From the NCBI RefSeq assembly GCF_000411295.1, contig NZ_KE150421.1, positions 1,370,835 to 1,434,834 of the forward strand: 64,000 nucleotides of DNA, in the 5' to 3' direction. A model generated the notes under the pieces. It worked only from the letters and a program-made list of their open reading frames with translations, was not told the origin of the DNA and made no database searches. The stretch comes from Paenisporosarcina sp. HGH0030. GTDB lineage: Bacteria > Bacillota > Bacilli > Bacillales_A > Planococcaceae. Below, piece by piece: positions 1-16,150 of this stretch; the stretch's first letter is position 1; each line of letters opens with the position of its first letter. Both the position numbers and the translations under genes were made by a program.

Positions 1-368
1 TAATCAATCTCCCTTCCGAGATTATAGAGCCTCTCATTGCGTTAAGTATTGCATTCGTCGCCCTGGAACATTTCTTCGGATTCTCTACGAAGCTCCGTTT
101 TGCCGTCGTATTTGGCTTTGGACTGATCCATGGGGTGGGATTTGCCGGTGCATTACAGCTGTCAAATGATGTAACCTGGCGTTCGCTTTTGTCCATTTTG
201 TCTTTTAACGTTGGTGTTGAAGTAGGACAAGCACTGATCATCATGCTGCTATTTCCCATTCTTCTTTATATCCGCCGATTCGAATGGTCAACTGTCGTCT
301 ACGGATCGGCAACCGCTGGTATTTTTGGAATGGGATTATTCTGGTATTTTGAGCGATTTTTAGCCTAA
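1..368 (+). CDS. HupE/UreJ_2-family membrane protein, C-terminal part (gene starts before the window)
   Basis: The frame is open from base 3 to a TAA at 366-368, so only the C-terminal ~121 residues are present. It carries the family hallmark GFGLIHGVGFAG and a later FNVGVEVGQA helix, matching positions in the complete paralogue at 11162-12247. Three hydrophobic segments are visible. HupE/UreJ proteins are integral membrane proteins, some of which are nickel/cobalt permeases; the substrate of this subfamily is not established. The next gene, 90 bases downstream on the same strand, is a secreted phosphoesterase, an arrangement repeated at the second locus. A GTG at 135 would give a spurious short ORF; the reading frame clearly continues upstream. 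Confidence 0.85.
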   Translation, partial: INLPSEIIEPLIALSIAFVALEHFFGFSTKLRFAVVFGFGLIHGVGFAGALQLSNDVTWRSLLSILSFNVGVEVGQALIIMLLFPILLYIRRFEWSTVVYGSATAGIFGMGLFWYFERFLA

Positions 369-458
369 TGCTGAATCTCTTTCCTTTTCTTATAGGGGGT
401 GGTTCAAAAAGAGTAGCTTAAGGGTGTTAAAAATACGAGATTAATAGGAGGAATAAGA

Positions 459-3400
459 ATGAAACCTTTAAATGAAAAAGGGAAAACGGTGAAGGAAAAG
501 CTTAAACCGATTACCGTAGCCGTGATGTGTAGTCTTGCTTTGGCGGCTGTCGTCAAACCGGTTGTCGCAGATAATCCTAATGCTACTGTTACGGGAACGG
601 TGTTCGCAGACAAAAATGGAAATGGAGTCCGCGATAACAACGAACAAGGAATTCCAAATGTGTCTGTATCAGATGGTAAGAGCATTTCCGTTACCGATGA
701 TTCAGGAAAGTATACACTGACGGCAAACATTGAAAGACGCCAGTCGGATATCGTCTTTGTTACCGTTCCTAGCGGGTATAGCGTCCCAACAGACGAAAAC
801 AAAACACCCCAGTTCTATAAGCAACTTGGCAACCTCGAGGCCGGTGAAACACGAGAACAAAACTTCGGACTGCTACTTAAGCCTGAAAGCAATAATCCTA
901 ACTTTTCCTTTGCCAACGTGGCCGATGTTCACGTGGAAGCAGGGTCAAATAATAACCGTGAACGATTCACATCACAGCTAGCGCAAATTAACGAATCGAC
1001 AGGAAACCCGGCCTTTATCGCCATTAGTGGCGACTTGACCAACCGGGCGACCGATGCAGAATATCAGGATTATACAGCGAGCACAGCTACATCTGCTGTT
1101 CCTGTCTACCCAGCTGTCGGAAACCATGACTTTGCCCCAGGTTCTAGCTATCAAACAAGAGTAGACCGTTACCGCAAGTATCTCGGACCTGAGTGGTATT
1201 CATTCGATTATGGCAACAGGCATTTTGTCACATTGGAAAATACATTGGGCTTCAATGAAAATGACCAATTGGAATGGTTAAAACAGGATCTCGCCCAAAA
1301 TGCAAAAGACAAAGAAGTAGTAGTATTCGTCCATAAGCCTTTGAATACACCGGAAACCCCGTCACCTGATAACACGAAGAAGTTTATTGAACTTCTTAGC
1401 CAGTATCAGACACGACTGGTGATGGTTGGACATACCCATGTTAACGATGTGGCACAAGATACGATTCCAGGTGCTAACCATGTAACGACTGTTTCAAGTG
1501 CTTATACGATCGATCAGTCACCGAACGGATTCCGGATGGTTTCTTTCCAGGGCGACCACAAGAATGCTAAGTATAAGATGTATGACGTTAAACAAAGCGC
1601 AGCGATTGTCCATCCAGCGGCCGGAAGCGATGTTCCAAAGGGCGAAGTGGACATATTGGTAAATGCCTATAATACGACAAGCAATATCTCTAAAGTGGAA
1701 TACAGAGTAGATGGCGGCTCATGGAAAAAACTGAAACAAAGCAGCGGAATGGCCTGGTTTACCCAATGGAATGCTAAAAAAGCATCAAAAGGCAAGCATG
1801 CCATAGAAGTTAGGGTAACCGACGATGCAGGAAAGGTTTGGGTTAAAAACAACACGTTCAACATCGTGGACTCTCAGCGTATCTCACCTAAGGGCGGTTC
1901 TGACTGGACGATGTTCCACGGCAATGCCCAGCATACCGGAGAGGCAAAAGATACACTCGAAGCGGGTATGCGATTAGGTTGGACCTACCGGACACCAGGT
2001 ACGATTCTTACCTCCTCCCCTGCCATTGCAAATGGAATGGTTTATATCGGGACACGTGATGAAAACGGAACGGACCAAAATGCTATCCATGCGGTTGACC
2101 TGGAAACCGGCCTAAAGAAATGGGCAGTAAAAGCAGATGCCCAGGTCCAAGCATCCCCAGCAGTAGCAGACGGAGTCGTTTATGCGAATTCGATTCGCGG
2201 CACACTCTATGCGATGAATGCAAAAACCGGGGAAAGGATTTGGGAAAAATCCGTTGGCAAGGATCAAGTACAGAGATCCTGGATGTATTATTCTCCAACA
2301 GTAGCCGATGGAATCCTATACCAGGCATACAGCACAGGCAGCGGAGGTGCAATCATGGCTCTTGATGCCAAAACTGGCGAACAATTATGGAATGCTCCTT
2401 TAGCAGGCGGCTGGATCGTTGAATCCACACCTGTAGTACAAGATGGCAAGGTATTTGTTGGTGCAGACGGCGGCTGGCTGATCTCTCTTGACGCTGCTAC
2501 AGGCAAGGAAATCTGGCGCAAAAAACCAGCAGGCGGCTGGATGCACTCCATGCCTTCCATCTCAGATGGCCGTGTGTTTATGGGGTACCAGGGCGGTTTA
2601 ATCGTCTCACTCGACGCCTCGACAGGCAACGAGCTATGGCGCTATAAGAGCTCCGATAAATCCTACATTCATGGTCAGGCAACTGGTTCCTCCCCTGCCG
2701 TAGCGGATGGAGTCGTCTACATGGGATTCCCTGACGGAAACGTTGCTGCAATAGACGCGGGCACAGGTTCCTTAAAATGGAAATATCGTACGGATGGCGG
2801 AATCATTTCATCAGCAGCCGTTAGTGGAGAAACCATCTTCATCGGTTCCAACGACGGAAATCTTTATGCGCTTGACCGAATAACAGGACAGCCATTATGG
2901 CATCATGAAATTGGAGCTTGGGTGGCATCTTCCCCTGCGATTTCAGGAAATACACTTGTTGTTGGTGCTCATGATGGAAACCTTTATGCATACACACCTG
3001 GAGGAAAATCTGCCCAAAGATGGCCGCGAGTAACCGGTAAGGTGACGGATGCTGATACCGGAAAACCGGTAGCCGGTGCGACCGTTGTAGCGACCGATAC
3101 CGAGGGGAACCGCCAGACTTCAGTAGCCAATGCTGATGGCCAATACCTGATCGGATTAAAACCAGGCAAATATACTCTTTCTACAAAACGAAGAGGGTTT
3201 TATTCAGACACTTCTCTTTCTGTCACGATGGTAGAGGGGAAAAATGAAACGAAGGAACTAAAGCTAAACGCCATCACCGAGCCGATTGCAGGAGAATCTC
3301 AGGAAGCTCCAGATTTTCATGCAGGAAGCACCCGCTTGGACGCAACAACAGACAACCCGTACCATTACATCATCAATAACAAGGTAGAGGCGACCATCTC

Positions 3401-4097
3401 AACACAAGTGGCTGCCAATAATCAGGCAGGTACTTTCCAGCCTGGATGGCTAGGCGATTTTGCCCTACAGGATGATAATGCCATGGAAACCTTGGATTGG
3501 AGCGAGTTAATCCTTTCACCGACTATGAATGATCCACAAGTTCCATGGAACCGTTCTGGAGAATGGCTGTCTCTTCCTAAAATCGAGACCTTAGGAAACG
3601 CAATAAAAGCTTCCGGAGAAGCACAAATTGATCCGTCCATCAAGACGTCGGTCACCTACCAATTGCTTCCGGATGCACCGGTGGCCAAGCTAACCTTGGA
3701 ATTAGAAAATACCGGAACAAAAGATTTCAAAGGATACTTCCAATATTTACTCGATCCAGACAGTTCTGATGACACGGCAATAGTTCCAGGTTTTGCAAAC
3801 GTTAATCCCGGCTTCAAGACTTCCGGATGGACGGGGAATTATGTGTATGATGGGCCTAAAACCGCTATAAACAGCCCGGCACATGGGATTGCCTGGGTCA
3901 AAGACAAACCAACTGGGATCAGTGCCTTCGGTTATATTTTCGGTGCCTCCTTTGATGCAAGTGTAGCAGCAGGCGAAAAACGGACAATCAGCTGGTACCA
4001 CATCACCGACTATCCTGCCGAAGGAACGAACCCCGCAGCTAATATTGAGCGGTGGGCAACACAGCTGGAAACATTGGATCCAAATGCAGCAGAGTAA
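459..4097 (+). CDS. Secreted modular metallophosphoesterase with PQQ-type beta-propeller (phosphoesterase 1)
   Basis: 1212 residues. A signal peptide (about 1-37) is followed by an SdrD-B-like repeat with FADKNGNGVRDNNEQG (40-140). The calcineurin-like phosphoesterase domain (about 145-375) shows DVH, SGD, GNHD, VHK and GHTH, so the full metal-binding set is intact. Next come an Ig-like linker (380-470), seven or eight PQQ-like blades (470-860; repeated LDAATGKEIW-type motifs), a carboxypeptidase-regulatory-like domain (865-945) and an unassigned C-terminal domain. The AGGAGG at 447-452 fixes the start. It presumably hydrolyses a phosphoester outside the cell; the substrate is unknown. Base composition is clearly richer in G+C than the flanks. 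It is probably co-transcribed with the HupE-like gene upstream. Confidence 0.9.
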   Translation: MKPLNEKGKTVKEKLKPITVAVMCSLALAAVVKPVVADNPNATVTGTVFADKNGNGVRDNNEQGIPNVSVSDGKSISVTDDSGKYTLTANIERRQSDIVFVTVPSGYSVPTDENKTPQFYKQLGNLEAGETREQNFGLLLKPESNNPNFSFANVADVHVEAGSNNNRERFTSQLAQINESTGNPAFIAISGDLTNRATDAEYQDYTASTATSAVPVYPAVGNHDFAPGSSYQTRVDRYRKYLGPEWYSFDYGNRHFVTLENTLGFNENDQLEWLKQDLAQNAKDKEVVVFVHKPLNTPETPSPDNTKKFIELLSQYQTRLVMVGHTHVNDVAQDTIPGANHVTTVSSAYTIDQSPNGFRMVSFQGDHKNAKYKMYDVKQSAAIVHPAAGSDVPKGEVDILVNAYNTTSNISKVEYRVDGGSWKKLKQSSGMAWFTQWNAKKASKGKHAIEVRVTDDAGKVWVKNNTFNIVDSQRISPKGGSDWTMFHGNAQHTGEAKDTLEAGMRLGWTYRTPGTILTSSPAIANGMVYIGTRDENGTDQNAIHAVDLETGLKKWAVKADAQVQASPAVADGVVYANSIRGTLYAMNAKTGERIWEKSVGKDQVQRSWMYYSPTVADGILYQAYSTGSGGAIMALDAKTGEQLWNAPLAGGWIVESTPVVQDGKVFVGADGGWLISLDAATGKEIWRKKPAGGWMHSMPSISDGRVFMGYQGGLIVSLDASTGNELWRYKSSDKSYIHGQATGSSPAVADGVVYMGFPDGNVAAIDAGTGSLKWKYRTDGGIISSAAVSGETIFIGSNDGNLYALDRITGQPLWHHEIGAWVASSPAISGNTLVVGAHDGNLYAYTPGGKSAQRWPRVTGKVTDADTGKPVAGATVVATDTEGNRQTSVANADGQYLIGLKPGKYTLSTKRRGFYSDTSLSVTMVEGKNETKELKLNAITEPIAGESQEAPDFHAGSTRLDATTDNPYHYIINNKVEATISTQVAANNQAGTFQPGWLGDFALQDDNAMETLDWSELILSPTMNDPQVPWNRSGEWLSLPKIETLGNAIKASGEAQIDPSIKTSVTYQLLPDAPVAKLTLELENTGTKDFKGYFQYLLDPDSSDDTAIVPGFANVNPGFKTSGWTGNYVYDGPKTAINSPAHGIAWVKDKPTGISAFGYIFGASFDASVAAGEKRTISWYHITDYPAEGTNPAANIERWATQLETLDPNAAE

Positions 4098-4165
4098 TCT
4101 CTACATCCACTTTTACTTGACTGTTTTATAGTTTGATAGAATACTCATTAAATTGACCCTAATGA

Positions 4166-4199
4166 AAAGGAGTGCCGGAGTTTTCGGCACCCCTTTTTT
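4166..4199 (+). terminator. Rho-independent terminator after phosphoesterase 1
   Basis: The arms GTGCCG and CGGCAC flank a short loop and are followed by CCCTTTTTT. It lies 70 bases after the stop codon. Confidence 0.8.
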
Positions 4200-4560
4200 A
4201 AGTGAATGTTGGGCAGTAAATGTTTTATTTGAAAGGGGATGCCCTTGCACATTGGTTGACATACTTCCGGATGAGGAAGTGATCACCTTCAGTTAAAAGT
4301 TGAACTAGGGGACATCAGGAAGGTAAACAAAAAAACCGAAGGCGCGACAACGCAAACGGCTTAAAGAAAAGAACGCCCCCTATTGCCACTCCGCACTAAC
4401 CCGCCATAATCACCCTCTGCATTAACTATCAAATGCTACTATAGTGAAGTCATTAACTTCATTACCATTAAGAAAAAGCTCCGTGTAAAGGCAGCTTAAA
4501 CTAAGCAGTTAGCCATCCATGTAGCGCAAAACCAGGCTACTACACAAGATGCTGTTTTTA
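4200..4560. other. Intergenic stretch with degenerate family-C repeat copies
   Basis: No gene is supported here. Fragments resembling the family-C repeat occur at about 4247-4275 (TTGACATACTTCCGGAT-like) and 4446-4515 (AAGAAAAAGCT...AAAGGCAGC-like). Confidence 0.4.
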
Positions 4561-4640
4561 AATAAAGTCACGATGTTTTTAAAAAAGACGCGATGTTTTG
4601 AATAAAATCGCGACGTTTATAAAAAAGTAGCGATGTTTTG
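4561..4640. repeat. Four tandem 20-bp repeats with a CGATGTTTT core
   Basis: Exactly four 20-base units begin at 4561, 4581, 4601 and 4621. Each contains CGATGTTTT or CGACGTTTA after an A-rich half. A partial unit (GATGCTGTTTTTA) precedes them. The 20-bp spacing is close to two helical turns. The function is unknown. Confidence 0.85.
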
Positions 4641-4771
4641 CCCCTTTGGATCTGTTTATATAAAGGGGTGTTTTTATAGTGAAAAGTGAAAAGAAGTTCT
4701 GAACGGAAAGCGCGGATTAAGGAACTATTGAGTAGCAATAAAGTTACTCAACTAAAGGGCCATTTAATTGA

Positions 4772-4809
4772 ATAAATCTAACCGTTTCTAGAGGAAACGG
4801 TTAGATTTA
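4772..4809 (-). terminator. Terminator of fabF
   Basis: Near-perfect inverted repeat with arms AAATCTAACCGTTTC and GAAACGGTTAGATTT around a 4-base loop, 16 bases past the fabF stop codon. Confidence 0.85.
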
Positions 4810-4824
4810 CGAGAGAAAGTTTAT

Positions 4825-6060
4825 TCACTCGTATTTTTTTAAAACAATAGCCGCATTATGACCTCCAAAACCAAATGAGTTAGATAGCCCCATATTTATT
4901 TTCACTTGGCGAGCAACAGACGGTACATAATCTAGATCACATAATGGATCAGGATTTTCTAAGTTAATTGTTGGAGGAACTATCTCTTCCTTTATGCTCA
5001 TTGCTAAAGCAATTGCTTCAACTCCACCAGCTGCCCCTAACATATGACCAAGCATAGATTTATTAGCTGTTATTGGAATCTGATAAGCTAGCTTTCCAAA
5101 TAGCTGCTTAATAGCCATCGTTTCAGAGATGTCCCCCACTTTTGTACTTGTTGCATGGGCACTAATAACATCAATTTCCTCAGGAGATATATTGGCATTT
5201 TTTAAAGCTGATCTCATTGCAAGATAGGCCCCTCTACCTTCTGGGTGTGTAGCTACCATATGGTGTGCATCTGAACTTGCACCATATCCAATGACTTCTG
5301 CATAAATCTTTGCCTCTCTACGTAAAGCATGAGATAAGGATTCTAAGATTAGAATTCCAGCTCCTTCTGACATGACAAATCCATCTCGATTTTCATCAAA
5401 TGGACGACTAGCTTTAGTTGGATCGTCGTTTCTTGTTGATAATGCTGTAGCATTACCAAAGCTTGCTATTGATAAGTCTGTTATAGCTGCCTCTGTTCCA
5501 CCCGCAAACATAACGTCAACTTCTCCAGAACGGATTAGTCTAAAGGCTTCTCCGATAGCTGTATTTCCAATTGCACATGCGGAAACAGGAGACATAGAAG
5601 GTCCCATGGCGTTCCATTGGATACTAATTTGTGCAGCAGCAGCATTAGAAATCATGGCAGGTACTAGAGTTGGGCTGACTCTTCTTGGTCCCTTCTGTCT
5701 AAGCGCATCAATATTTTCAATTAAGGTTTCAAGTCCCCCTATACCTGAACCTACGTATACGCCTAACCTTTCTCCGTCTATACGTTTGAGGTCTAACTCA
5801 GAGTCTGTCCAAGCTTGTTCGGCTGCAGCCAAAGAAAATTGAGAAAAGCGATCTAAACGTCTTGCTTCTTTCTTTCCAAAAATTTCATCTGCATCAAAAT
5901 CTCGTATGACACCTGCAATTTTTGCCTTATGATTAGTAACATCAAATGTATCAATAAGGGATATACCAGACTCTCCGTTAATCAGATTGTTCCAAAATGT
6001 CTTGAGGTTGTTTCCAATAGGAGAGACTACTCCCATACCTGTAATCACAACTCTTTCCAC
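4825..6060 (-). CDS. fabF: 3-oxoacyl-[acyl-carrier-protein] synthase II (FabF-type)
   Basis: 411 residues, the usual FabF length. The Cys-His-His triad is present: C162 in SACAIG, H302 in SAHATST (usually NAHGTST) and H339 in KSMLGHMLG. The enzyme condenses malonyl-ACP with acyl-ACP in cytoplasmic fatty-acid elongation. The start is GTG with GGAGTG about 9 bases upstream. It stands alone, without fabH or fab partners, and diverges from an MmyB-type regulator (6183-7034) across a 122-bp promoter region, so it is probably an accessory copy rather than the housekeeping gene. Its substrate could be unusual because the motif around H302 departs from the canonical one. Confidence 0.9.
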   Translation of the reverse strand: MERVVITGMGVVSPIGNNLKTFWNNLINGESGISLIDTFDVTNHKAKIAGVIRDFDADEIFGKKEARRLDRFSQFSLAAAEQAWTDSELDLKRIDGERLGVYVGSGIGGLETLIENIDALRQKGPRRVSPTLVPAMISNAAAAQISIQWNAMGPSMSPVSACAIGNTAIGEAFRLIRSGEVDVMFAGGTEAAITDLSIASFGNATALSTRNDDPTKASRPFDENRDGFVMSEGAGILILESLSHALRREAKIYAEVIGYGASSDAHHMVATHPEGRGAYLAMRSALKNANISPEEIDVISAHATSTKVGDISETMAIKQLFGKLAYQIPITANKSMLGHMLGAAGGVEAIALAMSIKEEIVPPTINLENPDPLCDLDYVPSVARQVKINMGLSNSFGFGGHNAAIVLKKYE

Positions 6061-6101
6061 TGTTCATCACTCCAAATCAATAATATACTTGTATTTTACA
6101 G

Positions 6102-6164
6102 TCACTTTATCCTATTACAAGTGATTGTTTATCCTGGTATAATTACCACTAGGTTAAATTGGTA
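6102..6164. promoter_or_regulatory. Overlapping divergent promoters and two inverted repeats between fabF and the MmyB-type gene
   Basis: On the plus strand, TTACAA (6115-6120), a 17-base spacer and TATAAT (6138-6143) form a near-consensus promoter. The complement of the same TTACAA can serve as -35 for fabF, followed by TAAAAT after 16 bases. TCACTT (6102-6107) and AAGTGA (6119-6124) form an inverted repeat over the shared element; TACCA (6144-6148) and TGGTA (6160-6164) form another downstream of the -10. Both are operator candidates. Confidence 0.65.
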
Positions 6165-6182
6165 TGATGAGGAGTTTTAAAA

Positions 6183-7034
6183 ATGAATGATAAAACTAGG
6201 CTTGAAGCTTTGTCGACATTCTTAAAAGCTAAGCGTGCTCAAATTAAGCCAGAGTCAATTGGTTTGCCTGTCGGAACCCGGAGAAGGACACCTGGGTTAC
6301 GAAGAGAAGAGGTTGCACAACTAGCAGGTGTAAGTACCACTTGGTATACATGGCTAGAGCAGGGAAGAGATATAAAAGTTTCTTCAATCGTATTTGATTG
6401 TATTTCTACAGCTTTGCAATTAAATAATGATGAAAGAGACTACTTATATGACCTGGCATTAGAAGCAAAATCGGAAATTACACATCCAAAAAAGGATCAA
6501 TCAGAGCTTAGCCCTTCTTTAAAACGAATACTAGCTGAATTAACATATTGTCCGACTATCATTACGGATCGACATTGCCATATTGTGGGCTGGAATCCTG
6601 CAGCTGCTCATGTTTTTTTAGATTTTGAACAAATACCGAATGATCAAAGAAATTTGATTCGTTTAGTGTTCACCAGAAAAGAATTCAAAGCATTGGCCGT
6701 CAATTGGGAACATTTTGCGAAAGGTTTTCTTGCCATTTTCCGTACCTATTATGGACACTATTTAGGCGATGAATGGTACAACCAATTTATTAAAGAAATG
6801 AGTCATTCACATCCAGAATTCCAAGATTTATGGCTAGAAAGTCAAGTGAGTAAGGCTCCAGAAATGATAATTGAATTCAGACATGCTAAAGCAGGCAAAA
6901 TGTTGTTTAATTTAACTTCTCTCCAAGTTCAAGGTGATATGGATTTACGGTGCAGTATCTATACACCAGTAGAGGAAACAGATACAGAAAAGAAATTAAA
7001 GCGATTAATGAAGAGGGTTTCCGTTGAAAATTAA
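6183..7034 (+). CDS. Helix-turn-helix regulator with MmyB-type ligand-binding domain
   Basis: 283 residues. An XRE-type HTH (about 10-75) includes the family signature RTPGLRREEVAQLAGVS and WYTWLEQGRD. The MmyB-like PAS-fold domain (about 105-270) contains the typical IVGWNPAA and RNLIRLVF segments. A characterised MmyB-type protein from Chloroflexus was crystallised with a bound fatty acid, and members often sit beside the gene they control. Here the divergent neighbour is fabF, so sensing of a fatty acid or acyl-CoA is a reasonable inference. GAGGAG lies 9 bases before the ATG. The actinobacterial examples usually pair with dehydrogenases; pairing with a ketosynthase is notable. Confidence 0.85.
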   Translation: MNDKTRLEALSTFLKAKRAQIKPESIGLPVGTRRRTPGLRREEVAQLAGVSTTWYTWLEQGRDIKVSSIVFDCISTALQLNNDERDYLYDLALEAKSEITHPKKDQSELSPSLKRILAELTYCPTIITDRHCHIVGWNPAAAHVFLDFEQIPNDQRNLIRLVFTRKEFKALAVNWEHFAKGFLAIFRTYYGHYLGDEWYNQFIKEMSHSHPEFQDLWLESQVSKAPEMIIEFRHAKAGKMLFNLTSLQVQGDMDLRCSIYTPVEETDTEKKLKRLMKRVSVEN

Positions 7035-7039
7035 TAAAG

Positions 7040-7185
7040 TAATTTCGTTATTCCATTATAGGGCGCTATTGTTGTGCAAACACAGGTAGAAAATGATCAA
7101 AACTTTTTTATAAAAAATTATTCACTAGCAACAAACAACCCAAGCATTTTGACCAAACTTTTTTCAAAATGTTTGGGTTTCTTCT
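7040..7185 (-). repeat. Family-B element (constant-loop hairpin), reverse orientation
   Basis: Begins with an AGGGCGCTATTGTTG-type end, then TGATCAAAACTTTTTTATAAAA, then a hairpin (about 7136-7180) with arms AACCCAAGCATTTTG and CAAAATGTTTGGGTT around CAAACTTTTTT. It matches the copy at 56044-56225 in organisation but not in stem sequence. It may also terminate the MmyB-type gene. Confidence 0.65.
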
Positions 7186-7218
7186 GTTGAAAAATCAATT
7201 TTTGTAGCATGCTTTTGA

Positions 7219-7850: not shown

Positions 7851-7860
7851 GCAGCAAGTT

Positions 7861-8628: not shown

Positions 8629-8637
8629 TTCTATAAT

Positions 8638-8672: not shown

Positions 8673-8673
8673 A

Positions 8674-8716: not shown

Positions 8717-8729
8717 GAATTTATTGTAC

Positions 8730-8929
8730 TTAATGTCTAGTAGTACCTGAAGTTATGTGTAATTCATTGTTACCGAATGAATCCGTTTTTCTGGCATTCG
8801 GATCTAACAACACGAGCAGCTTTCCATCTTTAACATCCCGTTCGTATTAATCTGCCTCATCTTCCGGAATGCCCATCCCAATTAATGCTCCAGCTAGTCT
8901 GCCTGTACCTGCACCGACTGCAGCTCCCC
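8730..8929 (-). pseudogene. General stress protein (YflT/17M-like) relic
   Basis: Minus-strand translation gives GAAVGAGTGRLAGALIGMG, then IPEDEAD-stop-YERDVKDGK and LLVLLDPNARKT. This matches the glycine-rich hinge and C-terminal domain of the Bacillus general stress protein family. An in-frame TAA replaces a codon between EAD and YER, and the whole N-terminal half is missing. The upstream edge abuts half of a family-A repeat (CCCCGTTAGTTGAAGAA), suggesting repeat-associated deletion. Its stop and terminator are intact. Confidence 0.75.
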
Positions 8930-8943
8930 GTTAGTTGAAGAAC
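8926..8943. repeat. Half family-A palindrome at the relic breakpoint
   Basis: Only the right half CCCCGTTAGTTGAAGAA remains, fused directly to the truncated stress-protein relic. Confidence 0.6.
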
Positions 8944-8974
8944 GATTAAATTTACAATAATACTATTTTGCCCC

Positions 8975-10246
8975 TCACTCTTTTGATTCATTTTCATTTG
9001 CAACTTTATTTATTCTTTCTAGCATTGTCGGATGTGAATAACGAAACCATTTTACGAGTAGTGGAGGATTCACCTCATTCAATCCTGCCTTCGTAAGTTC
9101 TTGAAAAGTTTTGACAGCTGCCTCCGGGTCGTCCATTAGGTTTATTGCATACTGATCAGCTCTTGTTTCCTGATATCTAGAAATATAATTTGAAATTGGA
9201 CTTGAAACGAATAATAGAAAAGATGTAATAAGTAAAAATAATGGCAATGAATGAATAGCGTTTACTCGTTTAATTTTTAATACACGTCCAAAGCGATGGA
9301 TAGCCCAAGGCATTATTTTAGCGGTTAACCAGAGCCCGACAAGCATCATTAGGATATAACGAGCGATTCCAAAATATATATGTTTCTCCACATAATGCCC
9401 CATCTCATGAGCCATGATGAAGAGAATTTCATTTTCTGATAAGCGGTTCAAAGTCGTATCCCATAATACTATTCTTGAATTATTCCCAATCCCCGTAACA
9501 TAAGCATTTAGAGCATTTGTCTTTTCCGCCATGTTAACTTCATACACATGTTCTGTTGGAATTTTTGCTTGCTCAGCCAACGTGAGAATTTTCGTCTCTA
9601 ATTCTTTATTTGTTAGTGGATAAAAATCATTATATAAGGGGTCGATTATTACTGGTTGAATAAACATGAGGAAAATGGAGAAAGGAATCATTAGTAACCA
9701 GGCATTGAACCACCATCTCTTTGTGCTTTTATTTATAAGCCAATAAAGAACCGTTACAATCACTACAGTCGTTCCTAAGTTAACCCAAAAATCAATGACA
9801 TTATCTCGCATCCAAGAATTGAAATCCTGGGTACTAATCCCATATTTTTTACTTAAGAAATATCTGTAATAGTCTAAAGGAAATAAAACAATAAACGTAA
9901 GAACAGACAGTAAAAATACATATACTGCATTTTGCAAAATTGCCCATTTTTTTTGCAAAGGAATCCATCTTTCAAACGCTTGTGAAAGTCCAGTAATCAG
10001 TATAAATAAATAGACAAGCCATTCAAACGGTATTGATACAAAAAAGAGAAAATTCTTTATTCTTGAATACTCCTCACTAAGGTACAATTCTCGATCCGAC
10101 ATAAAAACATGCGGATCTGCAACAGTTCCTTTTAAAGTTGCAGGTATACCCCCACTGCCACTATGGAAGATATAAACATACATCAGGAAAGCATATACCC
10201 CAAATAAGAAAAGAGCATTAATTCCCCATTTTTTCGTCAAATCCAC
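8975..10246 (-). CDS. M48-family membrane zinc metalloprotease (Ste24/YhfN-like)
   Basis: About 423 residues. The zinc motif HEMGHYVEKH and a downstream ETRADQYAINLMDDPEAA segment (third zinc ligand) are both present. Several transmembrane segments occur before and around the catalytic site, as in CAAX-prenyl-protease-type M48 enzymes, and the length matches Bacillus YhfN. It probably cleaves membrane or misfolded peptides; Bacillus lacks known prenylated CAAX substrates. The start is ambiguous: GGAGG at about 10251-10255 could serve the GTG at 10246 or a TTG at 10240, and the frame is open to a GTG at 10261. It is monocistronic. Confidence 0.85.
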   Translation of the reverse strand: MDLTKKWGINALFLFGVYAFLMYVYIFHSGSGGIPATLKGTVADPHVFMSDRELYLSEEYSRIKNFLFFVSIPFEWLVYLFILITGLSQAFERWIPLQKKWAILQNAVYVFLLSVLTFIVLFPLDYYRYFLSKKYGISTQDFNSWMRDNVIDFWVNLGTTVVIVTVLYWLINKSTKRWWFNAWLLMIPFSIFLMFIQPVIIDPLYNDFYPLTNKELETKILTLAEQAKIPTEHVYEVNMAEKTNALNAYVTGIGNNSRIVLWDTTLNRLSENEILFIMAHEMGHYVEKHIYFGIARYILMMLVGLWLTAKIMPWAIHRFGRVLKIKRVNAIHSLPLFLLITSFLLFVSSPISNYISRYQETRADQYAINLMDDPEAAVKTFQELTKAGLNEVNPPLLVKWFRYSHPTMLERINKVANENESKE

Positions 10247-10446
10247 TTCACCTCCACTCACTCTCTCTTACATACATTTAGTGTAATCAAAAACGGAAAA
10301 GATAGAACCATATTCTAACAAATATGCTTTATTTCCAACTATTCTATTAAGAAAAGCCCACTTTGGACGGACTTAGAGATATCATCACAGAGTATTTATT
10401 AAAATGAAAGGAGTGCTGTATTAAAGCCAATATCTAATCAAAACCT

Positions 10447-10700
10447 AACGAACAATTGGCATGCACATCCGAGTGGACAGATTCTTTTGGTTACTGGCGG
10501 AAGAGGCTGGTATTAGGAAAAAGGAAAACCTGCTCAAGAAATATATCCAGGAGATGTAGTGGAAATACTTCCAAATGTAAACACTGGCATGGTGCTGCAG
10601 CTGATAGTTGGTTTGTTCATCTTGCCATTGATCCAGATACAACAGTAGGTCCTCCTGAATGGTTCGAAAAATGCGTTAATCCTTCTTTCTATAACCTTAA
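10447..10700 (+). pseudogene. Cupin-domain protein relic
   Basis: Plus-strand codons read NNWHAHPSGQILLVTGGRGW, a TAG stop, EKGKPAQEIYPGDVVEILPN, then after a 1-base shift KHWHGAAADSWFVHLAIDPD. Both cupin histidine motifs are recognisable. The start is lost and the gene carries at least one stop and one frameshift, so it is not functional. Intact relatives are small cupins found with carboxymuconolactone-decarboxylase-type proteins. Confidence 0.75.
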
Positions 10701-10711
10701 CACCTAAACAA

Positions 10712-10822
10712 AAAACGCCTAAAACCTTTATCTATCAAGGGTTTTGGGCGTTACAAGAATGGTGGGTTATTTGCGTTAAAACGATACATGCGGAGCATAC
10801 CTGTAAATACCGAAAGCTAAAA
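10712..10822. repeat. Family-D element: AACGCC hairpin plus CATGCGGAGCATACC block
   Basis: A terminator-like hairpin (10714-10753; ACGCCTAAAACCTT with AAGGGTTTTGGGCGT) is followed by CATGCGGAGCATACCTGTAA and ATACCGAAAGCTAA. The same two parts, closer together, occur at 35614-35690. Confidence 0.65.
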
Positions 10823-10894
10823 CTGCTCCGATAGTTCAATAAGAAAAAAGGCTTCATTCCTTATTGAAGTAAAGCACCCGTTTGTTGAAGAAGG
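10823..10894. repeat. Family-A composite element
   Basis: TAGTTCAATAAGAAAAAAGG, then CTTCATTCCTTATTGAAG, then TAAAGCACCCGTTTGTTGAAG. The left palindrome is truncated; it adjoins family-D. Confidence 0.7.
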
Positions 10895-11060
10895 TTATTT
10901 AAAATTATCAATATTAAAGTGGAACCAACTTTATCCTACTATTTTAGGCGATGAGCATTACCCTTCAAACACTACATTGTTTTCTTCGTATGTCAAAGGA
11001 CCAACTACATTAGATTTCATTTCCAAGTTGCGCTGCTAATTGGAGTACATAAAATACTGC

Positions 11061-11160
11061 CTATTCAGGCTCTTCATTTTTTAATTCCGTTTTACATACT
11101 AGCTCATACTTTGTCTTATCTTTCCAATATTGCTCCAAAGATATAGTTACAATTTTATAG
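11061..11160 (-). pseudogene. Unrecognised C-terminal relic downstream of the HupE-like gene
   Basis: A minus-strand frame reads YKIVTISLEQYWKDKTKYEL then VCKTELKNEEPE and stops at 11061-11063. It has protein-like composition but no start. Positions 10895-11060 show no further gene. Confidence 0.3.
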
Positions 11161-11161
11161 T

Positions 11162-12247
11162 TTACTGCAGACGTTGAAGCAACCAATAAAATGCTAAAAC
11201 AAAAATAAGGCAAGACGCTGAGATCATCATTTTACGATACCATGGGAACCTGCGCAGCCAATTCAAGAGAGGCAGTAATAGACACAATACCATGAACTGA
11301 CCCGTTTCCACTCCTAAATTAAATGAGAGGAGTGTGCCAATCAGATTGCTCTTTGGAAGTCCTATTTCAGTCAAAGCCCCGGCGAAACCCATACCGTGAA
11401 TCAGGCCAAATATGGCTGTCAATAGCCACCGCCATTTCACCTTTTGAACAAATATATTTTCCACTGCCACATAACAGATGGTCAGCGCTATAAAAACTTC
11501 GACCCAATGCGAACTGACCTGAATACGGTCGGTGGCCACCAAGAATAGTGTTATGCTGTGGCCGATTGTAAAAGCAGTAACAATTTTCAACGCATCCTTG
11601 AAGCGAGATGCGATTAATACTAAGGATAACAAAAACAGCATATGATCGAACCCGGTCAAAATGTGTTCGATTCCAAGTACAAAGTATTTCCATAGGACGG
11701 ATTCACTTTCAGGCTGAGCAATGGTGATCTGAACATCTTTTTTTTTGGTATCAAGAATATTCTGATAGAAATAATCCCCTGAATGGACCAAAAGTACATT
11801 CGTATGTAGAGGCGCATCTTCAAACATCAGATTGTAATGAAGATTAAATTGTTCGATAGCTTCATCGGCGGTTATCCTTAATTTAAAAATTACGCCAATC
11901 GTGGAACCCTTTTCTGCCAACTCCATCGAAAGCATTTCCATCGTTAAGGGCTTCGAATCCACATCTATACGAAGATCTTTCTGTAATACCGATTCGATTC
12001 TTTCTTTCTGCGAGGACAGTTCCTCGTTATCCAGATATTTATCCTTGTTGGTATCAAATTGTTCCAGCATGTCTATTTGATCAAGAAAAAGTTCATAGTC
12101 AATCGTTTTCCCTTTAATGTTTAAATTCGAGTAACCCCTACTTTTGTCGGTATGGGCAAATGAAGTGCTGGCATTCGCACAAAATATTAAGGTGACTATG
12201 AACAAGGACAGGAATGCACGTAGTTTCAAAGCGAGACCTCTTTTCAT
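11162..12247 (-). CDS. HupE/UreJ_2-family membrane protein with extracytoplasmic EF-hand
   Basis: 361 residues. A signal peptide (1-32) is followed by an extracytoplasmic domain (about 33-170) with a canonical EF-hand loop, DTNKDKYLDNEE (ligands at positions 1, 3, 5, 7, 9 and 12). Six or seven membrane helices (about 190-360) include GIEHILTGFDHMLF, GHSITLF, FGLIHGMGFAG and FNLGVETGQF. The conserved His/Asp pattern fits metal-permease families; the true substrate is unknown. The ATG at 12247 is preferred over the preceding TTG; no strong ribosome site is seen. It lies downstream of secreted phosphoesterase 2, mirroring the locus at the window start. Its first codons lie in a duplicated segment (12234-12416). 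Confidence 0.85.
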   Translation of the reverse strand: MKRGLALKLRAFLSLFIVTLIFCANASTSFAHTDKSRGYSNLNIKGKTIDYELFLDQIDMLEQFDTNKDKYLDNEELSSQKERIESVLQKDLRIDVDSKPLTMEMLSMELAEKGSTIGVIFKLRITADEAIEQFNLHYNLMFEDAPLHTNVLLVHSGDYFYQNILDTKKKDVQITIAQPESESVLWKYFVLGIEHILTGFDHMLFLLSLVLIASRFKDALKIVTAFTIGHSITLFLVATDRIQVSSHWVEVFIALTICYVAVENIFVQKVKWRWLLTAIFGLIHGMGFAGALTEIGLPKSNLIGTLLSFNLGVETGQFMVLCLLLPLLNWLRRFPWYRKMMISASCLIFVLAFYWLLQRLQ

Positions 12248-12416
12248 CAAAGTTAAAATCTAATCCCTCGGAGCGAATCGTAATTGTGTCAATAAATATT
12301 GAGCGCCTTAATATAGAACGTCCCGCAGCAAATATTTTGCCGCGGGACCTCTTTTCATCAAAGTTTAAATCTAATCCATTGAGCGAATCGTAATTGTGTC
12401 AATGAATATTGAGCGC
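12234..12416. repeat. Direct duplication spanning the 5' end of the HupE-like gene
   Basis: About 70 bases at 12234-12302 recur at 12346-12416 with few changes (GACCTCTTTTCATCAAAG, then GCGAATCGTAATTGTGTCAA, then ATTGAGCGCC). The offset is 112 bases. Between the copies, GTCCCGC (12320) and GCGGGAC form a hairpin. The duplication copies the start codon region of the HupE-like gene. Confidence 0.85.
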
Positions 12417-12565
12417 CCCGCAGCACATGCTGCTGTGATTTCCTCCCATACAATATTCACTGCCCCTGTTGTTCCGTCATTGTATATGGCCTCAACCTTA
12501 GCAGGAAGTGCGGGTATTTCTCCTACGTTCGTATTCACGGCAACCGGTTTGAAGTCTACGATGTC
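12361..12565 (-). pseudogene. Detached C-terminal Ig-like tail of phosphoesterase 2
   Basis: Just past the stop codon at 12556, another minus-strand frame reads DIVDFKPVAVNTNVGEIPAL, PAKVEAIYNDGTTGAVNIVW and EEI. This is a typical Big_4-type Ig domain that normally follows an F5/8C domain in such enzymes. It runs to a TAG near 12379 inside the duplicated segment. A single-base indel near 12556-12575 would rejoin it to the upstream frame. Confidence 0.7.
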
Positions 12566-15500
12566 TTCGGTATTACACTTTCTGTTTCAAGGACGCTAAT
12601 CTCCGTAGCCGGAAGCACTGGCGCTAAAATTTTCATTTCCGACAAACCGACATTTGGTCCGCTTCCACCGGATACCTGGAATTTGACCCATGTCACCGTC
12701 TTGTCAGGGAAAGTTACAGAATAAGCGCTCCCGTCATTCGGGATTCCTGAAACCGTCACAGTGCTTCCGTCGCTAAAGGTAAGCGTTCCGCCGGGCGCCC
12801 AGTCAGCTAAATAAGGTCGATCATAGAAGGTAATCTTGCTGATCGTTTGATTCGACGTCCAATTCACCTGGATCCATGGATTCTGTTCTCCCTTTGACGC
12901 CCATTCGCCCGATTGCCCTATGATGCCATCGAACACTTTGTCGGGAGAACGAGCGGCATCGTAATACGATGAAGCGGTAACTGCGGCGGTCCACGCTGGG
13001 ATCTTATTAACAGTTACTCTAATGCTTGTTGTTAAAGGCACGTTATTGGGATTTGCCACCCCAGTTGGCAAAGTTACAGTTCCATTTACAGTGAAGGTCT
13101 GCGCCGTCGTGGCAGTGGGATCATAGTTTGAAGCATCTACATTCCATGTCACATTGGCATTATCCACCCTGCCTGCATCGGTATCCAAGGATACTGTCTT
13201 TGGCAATCCAAGGGCGTCCGCTGTCTTCGCCGTTCCGATTGCCACCTCTGTTATGTCAGCAGGTACTGTGATGCTGTTCAATTTTTTTTCTTGAATCTCT
13301 ATCAATTCAAACCAGCGAAAAACCCAAAAACCTGCATTTACATTCAGCCTTATTTTATGTGAGCCTTCACTCAGTCTGACCGTTTCGGATTTAATGACAT
13401 AGTTGGTCGGACCCCCAGTTGAGATTGAGGTTCTCGTTTGAGGTACTCCATCTACCAGGAATTCAACCTCTCCCGTATACCCCGCGTTTGATGCCACCTT
13501 GTAATTTAATTGATAGAATCCCGATTTTGCCACATCTACGTTATATTCCATCCAGTCGCCTATTTCCATAGCACCCACTCGCCATGCGGGTCCGCCATCA
13601 TTAATCCGTTGATTTCTAAGTACAGCACCTTGTTTCGAATTGTAGTTTGCACTTTCTATCCTTCCTGGCACCAATGCTGAACCAGGCAATACATCTAAAA
13701 TATTTACATTAAAGCTGGCTGTCTTTCCACCTAGAGTCACAGCCAGTTGCACTTTTCCTATACGAAAGGACTTAAAGCCGGTAATATTATCAACCGTTAC
13801 GTTTTCCACTTTTGTTGTTCCATCGCTGTAAGTGCCTGTCACAACCAGCCCGTCTATATTAAGCCCATCTCCCTGCAGGTAATTCAACTTTGTTGGCAGT
13901 TTAGTTATTTCGATGCTTTGCAACTTAACGTTAGAAGTCTCGTTGGCAATTGCCATGATCTGATCTGTAGACAATGCTTGATTGTAAACCCTTACTGCAT
14001 CAATACGTCCATTGAAGCTTTGTTGGCCTCTACTGTCTGCACCGATATACGTTCCCGTTGTTGGCGTATAAGGAGCTGTTGTATTATTGGTTACCGGTGT
14101 GCTCTTGCCATTGATATAAAGCTCCCAGGTGCCGCTTCTTCTTGCCGCCGTGATATTGGTCCATTGGCCCGCCGTCAAAGCAGTCTGCGATCCAAGGATC
14201 GTCTGCCCGTTGATTGCAATGGACACCTTATCGCCTTGGTCATGATCCAACACGATGGAATATCCATTGGTAAAGCCATCACCATTGGACAATATTTGTT
14301 GAGATCCTGAGGTTGCACCATTCCACTTCACCCAGGCTGTTAGCGTTAGATTGTTCTTTTTATTGGATACAAGATCTGTACTTGCATAATTATCGTCTGC
14401 ACCGTTCAGGCTGAGTGAAGCGGAACCTTCCATTTTATCCGTCTTATCATAGGCAGCACTTCCATGCAAAGTTGCATTAAACCCATTCTTGATACTGTCG
14501 TTGCCATTGCCGTTAAATCCCCACATCCTTTTGGGATCGTTACTATCCATAATTTGGAATTTATCTATGTGCACACCCGCTGCATTGCTATCGCTTTTTA
14601 TGACGATCTTGTTATTTGGACCCGTATTCAGCTCAACAGGTACCACCAATTCGTTATACGAACTCATGCTTCCGGTAGTCGGAAAGCTGAGCGTCTGTAC
14701 TTTGGCTCCATTTACATATATTCCCTTGGTAACATTGGCAGCATCGGTAGCATACCTGATTTTCAATATTTTGTTGCCGCCAGAAGCTCCTCCGTCAACC
14801 TTGAGCGACTCGATATATGCTTTTCCATCGTTCATTTTCACGTACTTGCCGCCGGACGGATTTACGTCGTCGCCAGCGGTTGCATATGCGAATACACTAT
14901 CCTCGGCTTCATACATGCCGGTTGTATTCGGGTGCAGACTCATAGTACCTTCCCAAATGGTTTTTTGTGTATTTACATCCCTTCCCTTTATATGTAACTT
15001 GTCTTTATATACATCAACAATCATAGCTTGATTATTTAAAACGGCACCGTCTCTTACTGCAGTGAATCCATTGGTGTACATGTTGCCTTCTATCTTAGTA
15101 TCGTCGTGAAGATGTCCTGTTGTTAAAATAACCTGTGGATATTTTTCAAGGATATCTCTGAACTTCTGTTCCTGTACCAAATTTTCATTATAATTGTCCG
15201 AAGAATATGACTTGGATACTGTCTGGTGAATAGGATTATGCGTGAACACAAAAATCGGCTTGTCCGGAACAGCATTTTCAGCAAGCTTGCTTTCAAACCA
15301 GGCTAACTGTTCGTCGGACATATACGCGTAATTGGTCGGTTTCTTATCAAACCCTAAAAATATGAAATCATATTCTTGTATTTCCCGGTGGTAATACACC
15401 TTCTCTTCTGGTATTCCTGCCTTTTGTATAAATCTGTTCTTCGCTACATTAAAATCCGGCTGCCAATCGTATTCATGATTTCCCATTGCATAATATACCG

Positions 15501-15816
15501 GCGGATGATCTTTTACAGAATTGATAGCATTTCTTATGGCGTCATATTCACCGCTATCCCCGAGATTGGTTATATCCCCGGCTAAAACTATTGCACTTAC
15601 ATTATTATTTTTAGCATCCGTTACAGCTTTAGCCGTTTTACCCGTATCGCTATGCGTGTCCGACATTGACATGAAGCTGAAGATAGGATCTTCCGTAGTG
15701 TTTTCTACCCCTGCTGCAGAGCTTTCTGCCGAAGTACTGCCTACTACACCCATCAGGGCTACATTCACCAGCATGAGTGATAGAAATGACTTTTTTAGCC
15801 TTTTAAGAAATAGCAT
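12556..15816 (-). CDS. Secreted modular metallophosphoesterase (phosphoesterase 2)
   Basis: 1086 residues in this frame. Signal peptide 1-31; calcineurin-like phosphoesterase about 45-290 with SDTH, AGD, GNHE, THN and GHLHDD; CBM-like linker to about 425; LamG/concanavalin-like domain about 430-610; Ig-like repeat about 620-700; CBM6-like domain about 705-845; Big_4-type Ig about 850-930; F5/8 type C (discoidin) domain about 940-1075. AGGAGG precedes the ATG at 15816. The binding modules imply attachment to polysaccharide or cell wall while cleaving phosphoesters. The C-terminus is probably frameshifted (see 12361-12565). A PhoP-type promoter about 300 bases upstream indicates phosphate-starvation control. 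G+C is higher than in neighbours. Confidence 0.88.
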   Translation of the reverse strand: MLFLKRLKKSFLSLMLVNVALMGVVGSTSAESSAAGVENTTEDPIFSFMSMSDTHSDTGKTAKAVTDAKNNNVSAIVLAGDITNLGDSGEYDAIRNAINSVKDHPPVYYAMGNHEYDWQPDFNVAKNRFIQKAGIPEEKVYYHREIQEYDFIFLGFDKKPTNYAYMSDEQLAWFESKLAENAVPDKPIFVFTHNPIHQTVSKSYSSDNYNENLVQEQKFRDILEKYPQVILTTGHLHDDTKIEGNMYTNGFTAVRDGAVLNNQAMIVDVYKDKLHIKGRDVNTQKTIWEGTMSLHPNTTGMYEAEDSVFAYATAGDDVNPSGGKYVKMNDGKAYIESLKVDGGASGGNKILKIRYATDAANVTKGIYVNGAKVQTLSFPTTGSMSSYNELVVPVELNTGPNNKIVIKSDSNAAGVHIDKFQIMDSNDPKRMWGFNGNGNDSIKNGFNATLHGSAAYDKTDKMEGSASLSLNGADDNYASTDLVSNKKNNLTLTAWVKWNGATSGSQQILSNGDGFTNGYSIVLDHDQGDKVSIAINGQTILGSQTALTAGQWTNITAARRSGTWELYINGKSTPVTNNTTAPYTPTTGTYIGADSRGQQSFNGRIDAVRVYNQALSTDQIMAIANETSNVKLQSIEITKLPTKLNYLQGDGLNIDGLVVTGTYSDGTTKVENVTVDNITGFKSFRIGKVQLAVTLGGKTASFNVNILDVLPGSALVPGRIESANYNSKQGAVLRNQRINDGGPAWRVGAMEIGDWMEYNVDVAKSGFYQLNYKVASNAGYTGEVEFLVDGVPQTRTSISTGGPTNYVIKSETVRLSEGSHKIRLNVNAGFWVFRWFELIEIQEKKLNSITVPADITEVAIGTAKTADALGLPKTVSLDTDAGRVDNANVTWNVDASNYDPTATTAQTFTVNGTVTLPTGVANPNNVPLTTSIRVTVNKIPAWTAAVTASSYYDAARSPDKVFDGIIGQSGEWASKGEQNPWIQVNWTSNQTISKITFYDRPYLADWAPGGTLTFSDGSTVTVSGIPNDGSAYSVTFPDKTVTWVKFQVSGGSGPNVGLSEMKILAPVLPATEISVLETESVIPKTS

Positions 15817-15829
15817 AATTAATCCTCCT

Positions 15830-16105
15830 GTTTTTTCTTGTAATACTCAATATGCCGTTTGTCGTCTTGCTTAGACCGTTAAGGGGTCCCTTAGAGGGGT
15901 TGAAAATCAGGATTTTATATTACTTAATCACTTAGCTGGAAAAATTCGTGTTTTGAAGGCGAAACCCCGTTAACGTCGAATCTTGTTGTCCCTCCCTCGT
16001 CGTAAAGTTTTTGAGCTAAATTCGCAAGCATTGATCCTATACAACACTTGCTACAAGATTTCCACCCCCTCCAGAATCAAATTTGCTTAACTGCTTAATG
16101 GTAAG
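15830..16105 (-). other. Long 5' leader of phosphoesterase 2
   Basis: About 280 bases separate the predicted transcription start from the ATG. It contains a small hairpin (GGGGTCCCTTAGAGGGGTT region, 15882-15902) and a GGAGGGGGTGG tract near 16062-16072 that resembles the start of a short leader, but no convincing leader peptide was found. Confidence 0.4.
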
Positions 16106-16111
16106 TGATAA

Positions 16112-16150
16112 ATTTTAATAGAGTGTATATCCAACGTAAATATTTTGTAA
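16112..16150 (-). promoter_or_regulatory. PhoP-type box and -10 for phosphoesterase 2
   Basis: Reading the minus strand: TTACAA (16150-16145), TTACGT (16139-16134), ATACAC (16128-16123), then TAAAAT (16117-16112). The hexamers repeat every 11 bases and fit the Bacillus PhoP consensus TT(A/T/C)ACA. The identical geometry occurs at 35415-35453 before phosphoesterase 3, and conservation extends about 45 bases into the leader. Confidence 0.8.

What the first reader, a model, noticed from the sequence alone, without database searches (positions are those of the whole stretch)
1..16150. Two HupE/UreJ_2 plus secreted-phosphoesterase modules: candidate phosphate/metal scavenging system
Seen: a HupE-type membrane protein adjoins a large secreted calcineurin-like phosphoesterase twice (1-4097 and 11162-15816), in different gene order. 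The complete HupE-type protein has an extracytoplasmic EF-hand. The phosphoesterases need di-metal centres and one has a PhoP-type promoter. Inference: the pair may couple extracellular phosphoester hydrolysis to uptake of a metal or of a reaction product. I know of no described system with this pairing.
Basis: partly seen in the sequence, partly recalled or inferred. Interest (0 to 1): 0.72.

Follow-up and report, generated by a model that had tools for sequence, protein, structure and literature searches.

The report
Secreted phosphoesterase paired with metal-binding permease
In this bacterium and many Paenibacillus-type relatives, a membrane protein with an exposed, probably metal-binding tip is encoded right beside a secreted phosphate-releasing enzyme, which suggests that the two work together, perhaps by supplying the enzyme with its metal.

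Summary
All three HupE_UreJ_2 genes of this genome, not only the two in the window, adjoin a secreted calcineurin-like phosphoesterase. In 34 Bacillota loci, 23 have a phosphoesterase-type gene immediately beside HupE. In 70 further loci fetched as a replication, 46 do with models built only from this genome (46 of 151 adjacent positions, 4 of 464 distant ones). Partners belong to unrelated folds (calcineurin-like, purple-acid-phosphatase-like, PHP), so function, not one inherited gene pair, is probably shared.

The HupE outer part is an anglerase: signal peptide, then an invariant Ala-His giving an N-terminal histidine, and a modelled fold matching copper-bound Ang-1 (9GCE). A 2025 paper already described anglerase-HupE proteins and named metallophosphatases among their frequent neighbours in Actinomycetota. 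The kind is therefore known; this is a Bacillota variant. Additions: fold-independent pairing, PhoP-box-like arrays before the enzymes, recurrent paralogues that keep the histidine but lack the membrane metal motif, and an EF-hand in about half of the proteins.

Best mechanism, inferred: HupE supplies or holds metal for the secreted enzyme. Metal uptake remains a close rival. No transport, metal or expression data exist here.

The parts
1..368 (+). 3' part of HupE_UreJ_2 gene, copy 1 (starts 715 bp before the window)
   Evidence: PF13795 E 1.1e-21; complete gene L004:8121-9203, 360 aa with Ala-His after a signal-peptide-like start
459..4097 (+). Secreted-type calcineurin-like phosphoesterase 1 (MetallophosN, Metallophos, PQQ propeller, CarboxypepD_reg)
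   Evidence: Pfam scan; signal-peptide-like N-terminus read by eye
11162..12250 (-). HupE_UreJ_2 gene, copy 2, complete (362 aa): signal peptide, anglerase-type domain, membrane domain
12152..12154 (-). Codon of His33, the predicted N-terminal residue after signal peptidase cleavage (Ala32-His33)
   Evidence: Ala-His invariant in 48 of 48 aligned; Ala-His pattern near the N-terminus in 84 of 85 full-length HupE frames of the 80 loci
12020..12055 (-). EF-hand loop of HupE copy 2 (residues 66-77)
   Evidence: Motif match; helices 58-65 and 75-80 flank it in the model
11642..11665 (-). HX5DH motif of the membrane domain (residues 196-203)
   Evidence: Present in 46 of 48 and 77 of 85
12556..15816 (-). 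Secreted-type calcineurin-like phosphoesterase 2 (Metallophos, LamG, Big_3, CBM6, DUF7402)
   Evidence: Pfam scan; signal-peptide-like N-terminus read by eye
15103..15675 (-). Catalytic Metallophos domain of phosphoesterase 2 (residues 48-238)
   Evidence: PF00149 E 3.3e-13
12320..12348 (-). 13-pair hairpin between phosphoesterase 2 and HupE copy 2; possible attenuator
   Evidence: First-listed terminator-like hit of 20 in 1-17000, weak T run
16113..16151 (-). PhoP-box-like array before phosphoesterase 2 (four hexamers, 11-bp period, 20 of 24 matches)
   Evidence: Rank 2 of 71 genes; same score in same-genus L023

Best explanation
Each module is a phosphate-starvation-type pair: a secreted phosphoesterase of a fold that uses a transition-metal centre, and an anglerase-HupE membrane protein whose N-terminal histidine faces outward. 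The HupE protein provides or holds transition metal at the outer membrane face so that the newly secreted phosphoesterase is correctly metalated and kept active. The pair's output is phosphate (or a nucleoside or sugar) released from extracellular phosphoesters. Shown: the pairing and its enrichment across unrelated enzyme folds, the invariant Ala-His, the anglerase fold in a model, the conserved membrane motif, and PhoP-box-like arrays. Inferred: signal peptide cleavage, metal identity, direction of transport, metal transfer to the enzyme, and PhoP control.
For: Pairing: 3 of 3 HupE in this genome; 23 of 34 Bacillota loci at +-1, 26 of 70 adjacent positions against 6 of 293 at +-3 to +-10, Fisher p 1e-15; with models seeded only from this genome's HupE-unlinked genes, 20 of 34 loci, 22 of 70 against 5 of 293, p 3e-13 (one of the 22, L057, is a PNKP-type enzyme and not a real partner); replication 46 of 70 loci, 46 of 151 against 4 of 464, p 2e-26. 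Unrelated folds that use metal (recalled) share the slot: calcineurin-like and purple-acid-type, PHP, DUF3604 with a PPIase between it and HupE in L147 and L111. A PHP enzyme of the 511-aa family (E 1e-176) sits beside a HupE only 28% identical to window copy 2 in Deinococcus. In 8 of 9 loci with HupE-Metallophos-HupE order one HupE keeps Ala-His but lacks HX5DH (L199 repeats L041), so the outer domain is kept without the membrane metal motif. PhoP-type arrays and no sign of Zur, Fur, MntR or CsoR patterns (no formal test). No urease alpha and no NiFe hydrogenase in this genome. Precedent: TerC proteins metalate exoenzymes during secretion in B. subtilis (PMC10550928, title and start of abstract seen in a search listing).
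Against: No metal, transport or expression data. [quoted passage not shown] paper not held), and the authors of PMC12537917 propose uptake. ArsP_1- and DUF1980-type permease genes lie near HupE in 13 of 70 held-out loci, which may point to transport for the cell's own need. Outside Bacillota only 1 of 48 loci has a phosphoesterase at +-1, so loading phosphoesterases is not the family's general job; DUF4331-TPR, DUF3500 and YHYH neighbours occur there. Among Bacillota 11 of 34 first-set loci have none at +-1, among them L034, the nearest relative in the scan (68% identity), which has ArsP_1 and DUF1980 upstream, close to the contig end. EEP enzymes, one partner type, are recalled as Mg-dependent.
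Confidence: 0.4

Rival explanations
1. Metal uptake: the phosphoesterase frees transition metal chelated by extracellular organophosphates (or simply shares its regulation), and the anglerase domain captures the metal and feeds it to the HupE permease for import.
For: The outer domain matches Cu-bound Ang-1 and the zinc-binding ZrgA and PA4063, which make up all 17 PDB chains at E <= 0.001; PMC12537917 reports nanomolar Cu binding by one Ang-1 and one Ang-2 domain and proposes uptake (section 8 read); HX5DH is kept in 77 of 85; ArsP_1 and DUF1980 near HupE in 13 of 70.
Against: PhoP-type rather than metal-type boxes; no urease or NiFe hydrogenase to serve; paralogues without HX5DH are kept around Metallophos genes; the partner is chosen by enzyme type.
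Confidence: 0.3
2. Product uptake: the HupE membrane domain imports a product of the phosphoesterase, such as phosphate or a metal-phosphate complex, with the His1 domain as receptor.
For: Pairing with several unrelated phosphoesterase folds that share chemistry; PhoP-type arrays.
Confidence: 0.1
3. Regulon hitchhiking: both genes answer the same starvation signal and travel together, with no direct coupling.
For: PhoP-type arrays also stand before a HupE-unlinked metallophosphatase of the window (32548-35145, rank 1 of 71).
Against: Adjacency is far above the background even within 10 genes; the partner label changes at least 11 times on a quick HupE tree, with labels set by hand, so pairing was gained, lost or switched repeatedly.
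Confidence: 0.15

Closest known systems
Anglerases Ang-1/Ang-2 fused to HupE/UreJ-2 (PF13795), PMC12537917
   Same: Signal peptide, N-terminal His, beta-sandwich outer domain with helices between strands 2 and 3 (as described for Ang-1), HupE/UreJ-2 membrane domain; metallophosphatases frequent beside Ang-2
   Different: Reported mainly from Pseudomonadota (Ang-1) and Actinomycetota (Ang-2); the main text has no occurrence of EF-hand, calcium, Bacillota, Firmicutes or phosphoesterase; in the section that I read there are no PHP or purple-acid partners, Pho boxes or motif-less paralogues
HupE nickel permease of Rhizobium leguminosarum
   Same: HX5DH-type membrane motif (recalled)
   Different: Required for hydrogenase (title as cited in PMC12537917); here no NiFe hydrogenase or urease alpha, and a large extra outer domain
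TerC proteins MeeF/MeeY of Bacillus subtilis (PMC10550928)
   Same: Function proposed here: metalation of secreted enzymes
   Different: Different protein family; not gene-paired with one enzyme as far as I recall
ZrgA (Vibrio cholerae) and PA4063 (Pseudomonas aeruginosa)
   Different: Zinc-bound in several of the solved structures; the matched chains (131-147 residues) hold no HupE membrane domain
PhoP-controlled secreted phosphatases of Bacillus (recalled)
   Same: Secreted phosphoesterase with tandem TT(A/C/T)ACA at 11 bp
   Different: No HupE partner that I recall; regulation here not measured

Membership tests
HupE_UreJ_2 (PF13795) | Profile match over the curated cut-off | tested here: met
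   163.8 bits against cut-off 24.5; three genes in the genome over the cut-off
HupE_UreJ_2 (PF13795) | HX5DH in the membrane domain | tested here: met
   Window copy 2 residues 196-203; 46 of 48. Motif definition recalled
Anglerase-HupE (PMC12537917) | N-terminal His directly after a signal peptide | tested here: met
   Ala-His invariant in 48 of 48; signal peptide read by eye, cleavage inferred, not measured
Anglerase-HupE (PMC12537917) | Ang-type beta-sandwich outer domain | tested here: met
Anglerase-HupE (PMC12537917) | Binding of Cu or Ni | not testable with these tools
   No binding data for this protein
Ang-1 or Ang-2 subtype | Sequence assignment to one subtype | tested here: inconclusive
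   Helical link between strands 2 and 3 as described for Ang-1; 14% identity to 9GCE; no Ang-2 sequence was compared
Nickel permease for urease or hydrogenase | Nickel enzyme in the same genome | tested here: not met
   PF00449 and PF00374: no match; Ni-SOD and other nickel enzymes not tested
Calcineurin-like phosphoesterase (PF00149) | Metallophos domain over cut-off | tested here: met
   54.2 and 50.9 bits in the window, 37.4 in the third copy, cut-off 21.5
TerC metalation proteins | Membership in the TerC family | tested here: not met
   Only two HupE families match HupE copy 2 in Pfam at E <= 0.001; this is a works-like claim only
Pho regulon | Tandem PhoP boxes before the operon | tested here: inconclusive
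   Ranks 2 and 3 of 71 genes for two lead genes, 24 of 71 for the third; enriched in both locus sets; no expression data. Box definition recalled

The most novel reading that the evidence does not exclude
HupE/UreJ_2 anglerases of Bacillota are dedicated, phosphate-controlled metal-loading partners of secreted phosphoesterases: an enzyme-specific counterpart of TerC exoenzyme metalation, acquired repeatedly beside enzymes of unrelated fold, with some paralogues reduced to the outer metal-holding domain on an inert membrane anchor.
Probability: 0.33. Interest if true: 0.78.

Novelty: new variant of a known kind. Interest (0 to 1): 0.55.

Why it matters
How secreted metalloenzymes receive the right metal is an open question. 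A membrane protein with a probable metal-binding tip that is genetically tied to one class of secreted metalloenzyme would make it directly testable in Gram-positive bacteria. It would also give a role to the widespread and poorly understood HupE_UreJ_2 family, found in 84 of 394 genomes of one Paenibacillus-type family (the family's identity is inferred) but only in 3 of 398 genomes, this one included, of an even draw from the phylum.

Tried and rejected
Metal boxes: Zur, Fur, PerR, MntR and CsoR patterns (recalled) in 250 bp upstream of HupE and partners. Five target genes had any hit: MntR-like 2, PerR-like 2, Fur-like 1, Pho-like 1 (one gene with two). Among 430 other genes there were MntR 8, Fur 5, PerR 4, Zur 1 and Pho 1. 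I made no formal test, and the number of target regions was not printed.

PhoP boxes: a strict 300-bp scan missed the window's array, which lies 335 bp upstream; a 450-bp scan found it. The intergenic background itself ranks the PhoP motif high (rank 1 of 180 permuted motifs at 15 of 18 matches, rank 2), so the motif is not unique to the partners. Their excess over that background is 11 of 29 against 21 of 166 (p 0.002) and 14 of 34 against 24 of 239 (p 2e-5). At 15 of 18 it is weaker: 5 of 29 against 9 of 166 (p 0.04) and 5 of 34 against 8 of 239 (p 0.01). In the replication set no partner reached 16 of 18.

Plasmid records: the HupE query gave 504 records, all under 60% identity; five regions were opened. 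One (Paenibacillus cellulosilyticus) has no annotation there. The other four are phosphoesterase-HupE, DUF3604-PPIase-HupE, YHYH-HupE and DUF3500-hypothetical-HupE. No Actinomycetota locus was examined, so the Ang-2 neighbourhood rests on PMC12537917.

Sequence search of the PDB with HupE copy 2 gave no hit at E <= 1. Literature: 'HupE UreJ' with 'metallophosphoesterase', 'HupE UreJ family protein', and 'HupE' with 'Pho regulon' gave 0 papers each, the first two perhaps because papers print a slash; 'HupE', 'phosphoesterase', 'UreJ' (two of three) gave 31, 25 listed, of which I looked into three; and one search returned no paper on the pairing among those listed. PMC11358556 reports a HupE/UreJ gene of Synechococcus PCC 7002 that is down-regulated under phosphate deprivation and whose knockout grows better then (passages seen): opposite in sign, and in a cyanobacterium. 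PMC12419801 had only an unrelated author name.

Independence limits: HupE copies 2 and 3 are about 73% identical and their enzymes share a 47%-identical C-terminal tail while the catalytic domains differ, so they are not two independent pairings. Some models were seeded with partner sequences; the neutral-seed runs remove this. Gene models were greedy longest ORFs; 7 of 55 non-Bacillota loci lost their HupE to an overlapping frame and were dropped. The replication loci are the best-scoring places of a listing that was itself cut. Tree labels were set by hand for 47 of 48 rows; some partners lie at +-2, that of L045 at +-4, and that of L033 was judged from its N-terminus alone.
Full report
WHAT IS THERE. 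The window lies at G000:C1:1370835-1434834 of an unnamed 3.52-Mb genome. HupE_UreJ_2 (PF13795) occurs three times in that genome, and all three copies adjoin a secreted-type protein with a Metallophos domain (PF00149): copy 1, window 1-368 with 459-4097; copy 2, 11162-12250 with 12556-15816; copy 3, L005:10167-11240 with L005:11467-14703. Secretion is judged by eye from signal-peptide-like N-termini. All pairs are co-directional; gaps are 90, 305 and 226 bp. Copy 1 is preceded by a secreted-type EEP-family (PF03372) gene. The genome has 23 PF00149 matches in about 22 frames, so one adjacency has a chance of about 0.012 and two independent ones about 1.6e-4 (gene number estimated). Copies 2 and 3 are related (HupE about 73% identical; shared enzyme tail 47% identical, catalytic domains diverged and differently placed); copy 1 is 29 to 30% identical to both.

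IS THE PAIRING GENERAL. Six loci of the same species or near relatives, and four with only 1.5-kb flanks, were left out. With local profiles for Metallophos, PHP, DUF3604 and EEP, 23 of 34 loci have a hit at +-1 and 25 at +-2; by position, 26 of 70 adjacent against 6 of 293 at +-3 to +-10. The 11 misses at +-1 are L029 (DUF3500 neighbour), L034, L035, L036, L040, L044 and L053 (both hit at +-2), L045 (at +-4), L057, L058 (withheld sequence) and L063. With profiles seeded only from this genome and without the HupE-linked enzymes: 20 of 34 loci, 22 of 70 against 5 of 293. One of these 22 (L057) is a PNKP-type protein, which I discount. Outside Bacillota only 1 of 48 loci hits at +-1, and 2 of 83 positions at +-2 (DUF3604); DUF4331-type and TPR proteins are common there.

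REPLICATION. A search of 394 genomes of the family of G365 found HupE in 84. I fetched the first 80 distinct places of the listing, which is ordered by score and cut, leaving out G365's own. Nine duplicated the first set at 90% HupE identity and were dropped, and one had no HupE in my gene model. Of the 70 left, 46 have a phosphoesterase at +-1 with the neutral profiles (46 of 151 adjacent positions against 4 of 464) and 53 with all profiles; one locus per 80% cluster gives 33 of 49 and 37 of 49. Of the 54 adjacent partner genes found with all profiles, 47 are co-directional, 7 divergent and none convergent; in the first set with neutral profiles it was 11, 8 and 3 of 22. Of the 17 misses, 5 have the enzyme at +-2; 9 hold withheld sequence, 8 of them over 2 kb within 4 kb of HupE.

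PARTNER TYPES. Calcineurin-like enzymes as in the window; purple-acid-phosphatase-like ones (L037, L041, L044, L047); giant surface proteins of 1701 to 2713 aa with LTD, OB-fold and PHP-type domains and SLH, CWB2 or sortase signals in those scanned; and a 511- to 583-aa PHP-type protein (L020, L022, L024, L025). For the giants the NCBIfam CehA/McbA model passes its cut-off in two of four scanned (L049, L026) and was not listed for the other two (L042, L059); those rest on the local profile seeded from this genome's own CehA/McbA gene (E 7e-28 and 7e-30) and the HxH and DH motifs. For the 511-aa type that model gives 69.8 and 67.7 bits (E 2.5e-19 and 1.1e-18) in the two scanned, below its cut-off of 80. 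The same 511-aa family (E 1e-176) adjoins a HupE on a Deinococcus plasmid, annotated there as phosphoesterase; that HupE is 28% identical to window copy 2. DUF3604-PPIase-HupE occurs in Roseibium and L111. On a quick HupE tree the four-state partner label needs at least 11 changes; gain and loss cannot be told apart. Unrelated folds in the same slot argue for a functional link rather than one inherited pair.

REGULATION. Before the window's enzyme 2 stands ATTACA-TTTACG-TATACA-TTAAAA at 11-bp period (16113-16151). Among 71 genes of the window and the two other loci, the top three arrays belong to metallophosphatases: an unlinked one at 32548-35145 with a signal-peptide-like start, enzyme 2 and enzyme 3; the EEP gene that leads copy 1 ranks 24th. 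Summed over the three lead genes the motif ranks 3 of 180 permuted motifs with four hexamers and 7 of 180 with three. In other genomes the partner upstream regions exceed the intergenic background in both sets: 11 of 29 against 21 of 166, and 14 of 34 against 24 of 239, at 14 of 18 matches. HupE's own upstream regions give a mixed picture: 6 of 38 and 6 of 80 at that threshold (rank 19 of 180 in both sets), but mean scores of rank 3 and 1 of 180. Because an unlinked metallophosphatase has the best array, this looks like a trait of the secreted enzymes, shared by HupE through co-transcription (inferred).

MECHANISM. I favour metal supply to the secreted enzyme (0.4) over metal uptake (0.3), regulon hitchhiking (0.15) and product uptake (0.1). 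Reasons: the partner is chosen by being a secreted, metal-using hydrolase; control looks phosphate-type; no urease alpha or NiFe hydrogenase exists here; outer domains persist without the membrane motif; and exoenzyme metalation by membrane proteins has a precedent (PMC10550928, search listing only). Against it: the proposal in print for these proteins is uptake (PMC12537917, section 8 read in full), and ArsP_1- and DUF1980-type genes lie near HupE in 13 of 70 loci.

KNOWN OR NEW. The anglerase-HupE architecture is published, and so is the frequent presence of metallophosphatases beside the Actinomycetota type. This case is a Bacillota variant.

Noticed in passing
window 32548-35145 (-): A further secreted-type metallophosphatase (865 aa), not beside HupE, with the best PhoP-box-like array of 71 genes examined.
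   Followed up: partly
window 12230-12640: After the stop of the 12556-15816 gene a coding-like stretch continues in another frame, and two pairs of 36-37-bp direct repeats spaced about 110 bp surround a 13-pair hairpin before HupE. The same-genus enzyme in L023 is longer (1156 aa).
   Followed up: partly
L037, L041, L152, L180, L181, L199, L203, L212: HupE-Metallophos-HupE loci in which one HupE lacks HX5DH but keeps Ala-His.
   Followed up: partly
L034, L045, L049-L052, L058 and 13 of 70 replication loci: ArsP_1- and DUF1980-type genes next to HupE; in L049-L052 a giant PHP surface protein lies on the other side.
   Followed up: no
L055-L108 (Pseudomonadota-type loci): Recurrent DUF4331-TPR-HupE order: 20 loci share one gene cluster at -1 (TPR in the member scanned) and 15 another at -2 or -3 (DUF4331 in the member scanned).
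   Followed up: no
L145, L146, L029: YHYH-HupE and DUF3500-HupE neighbours, further partners of unknown function.
   Followed up: no
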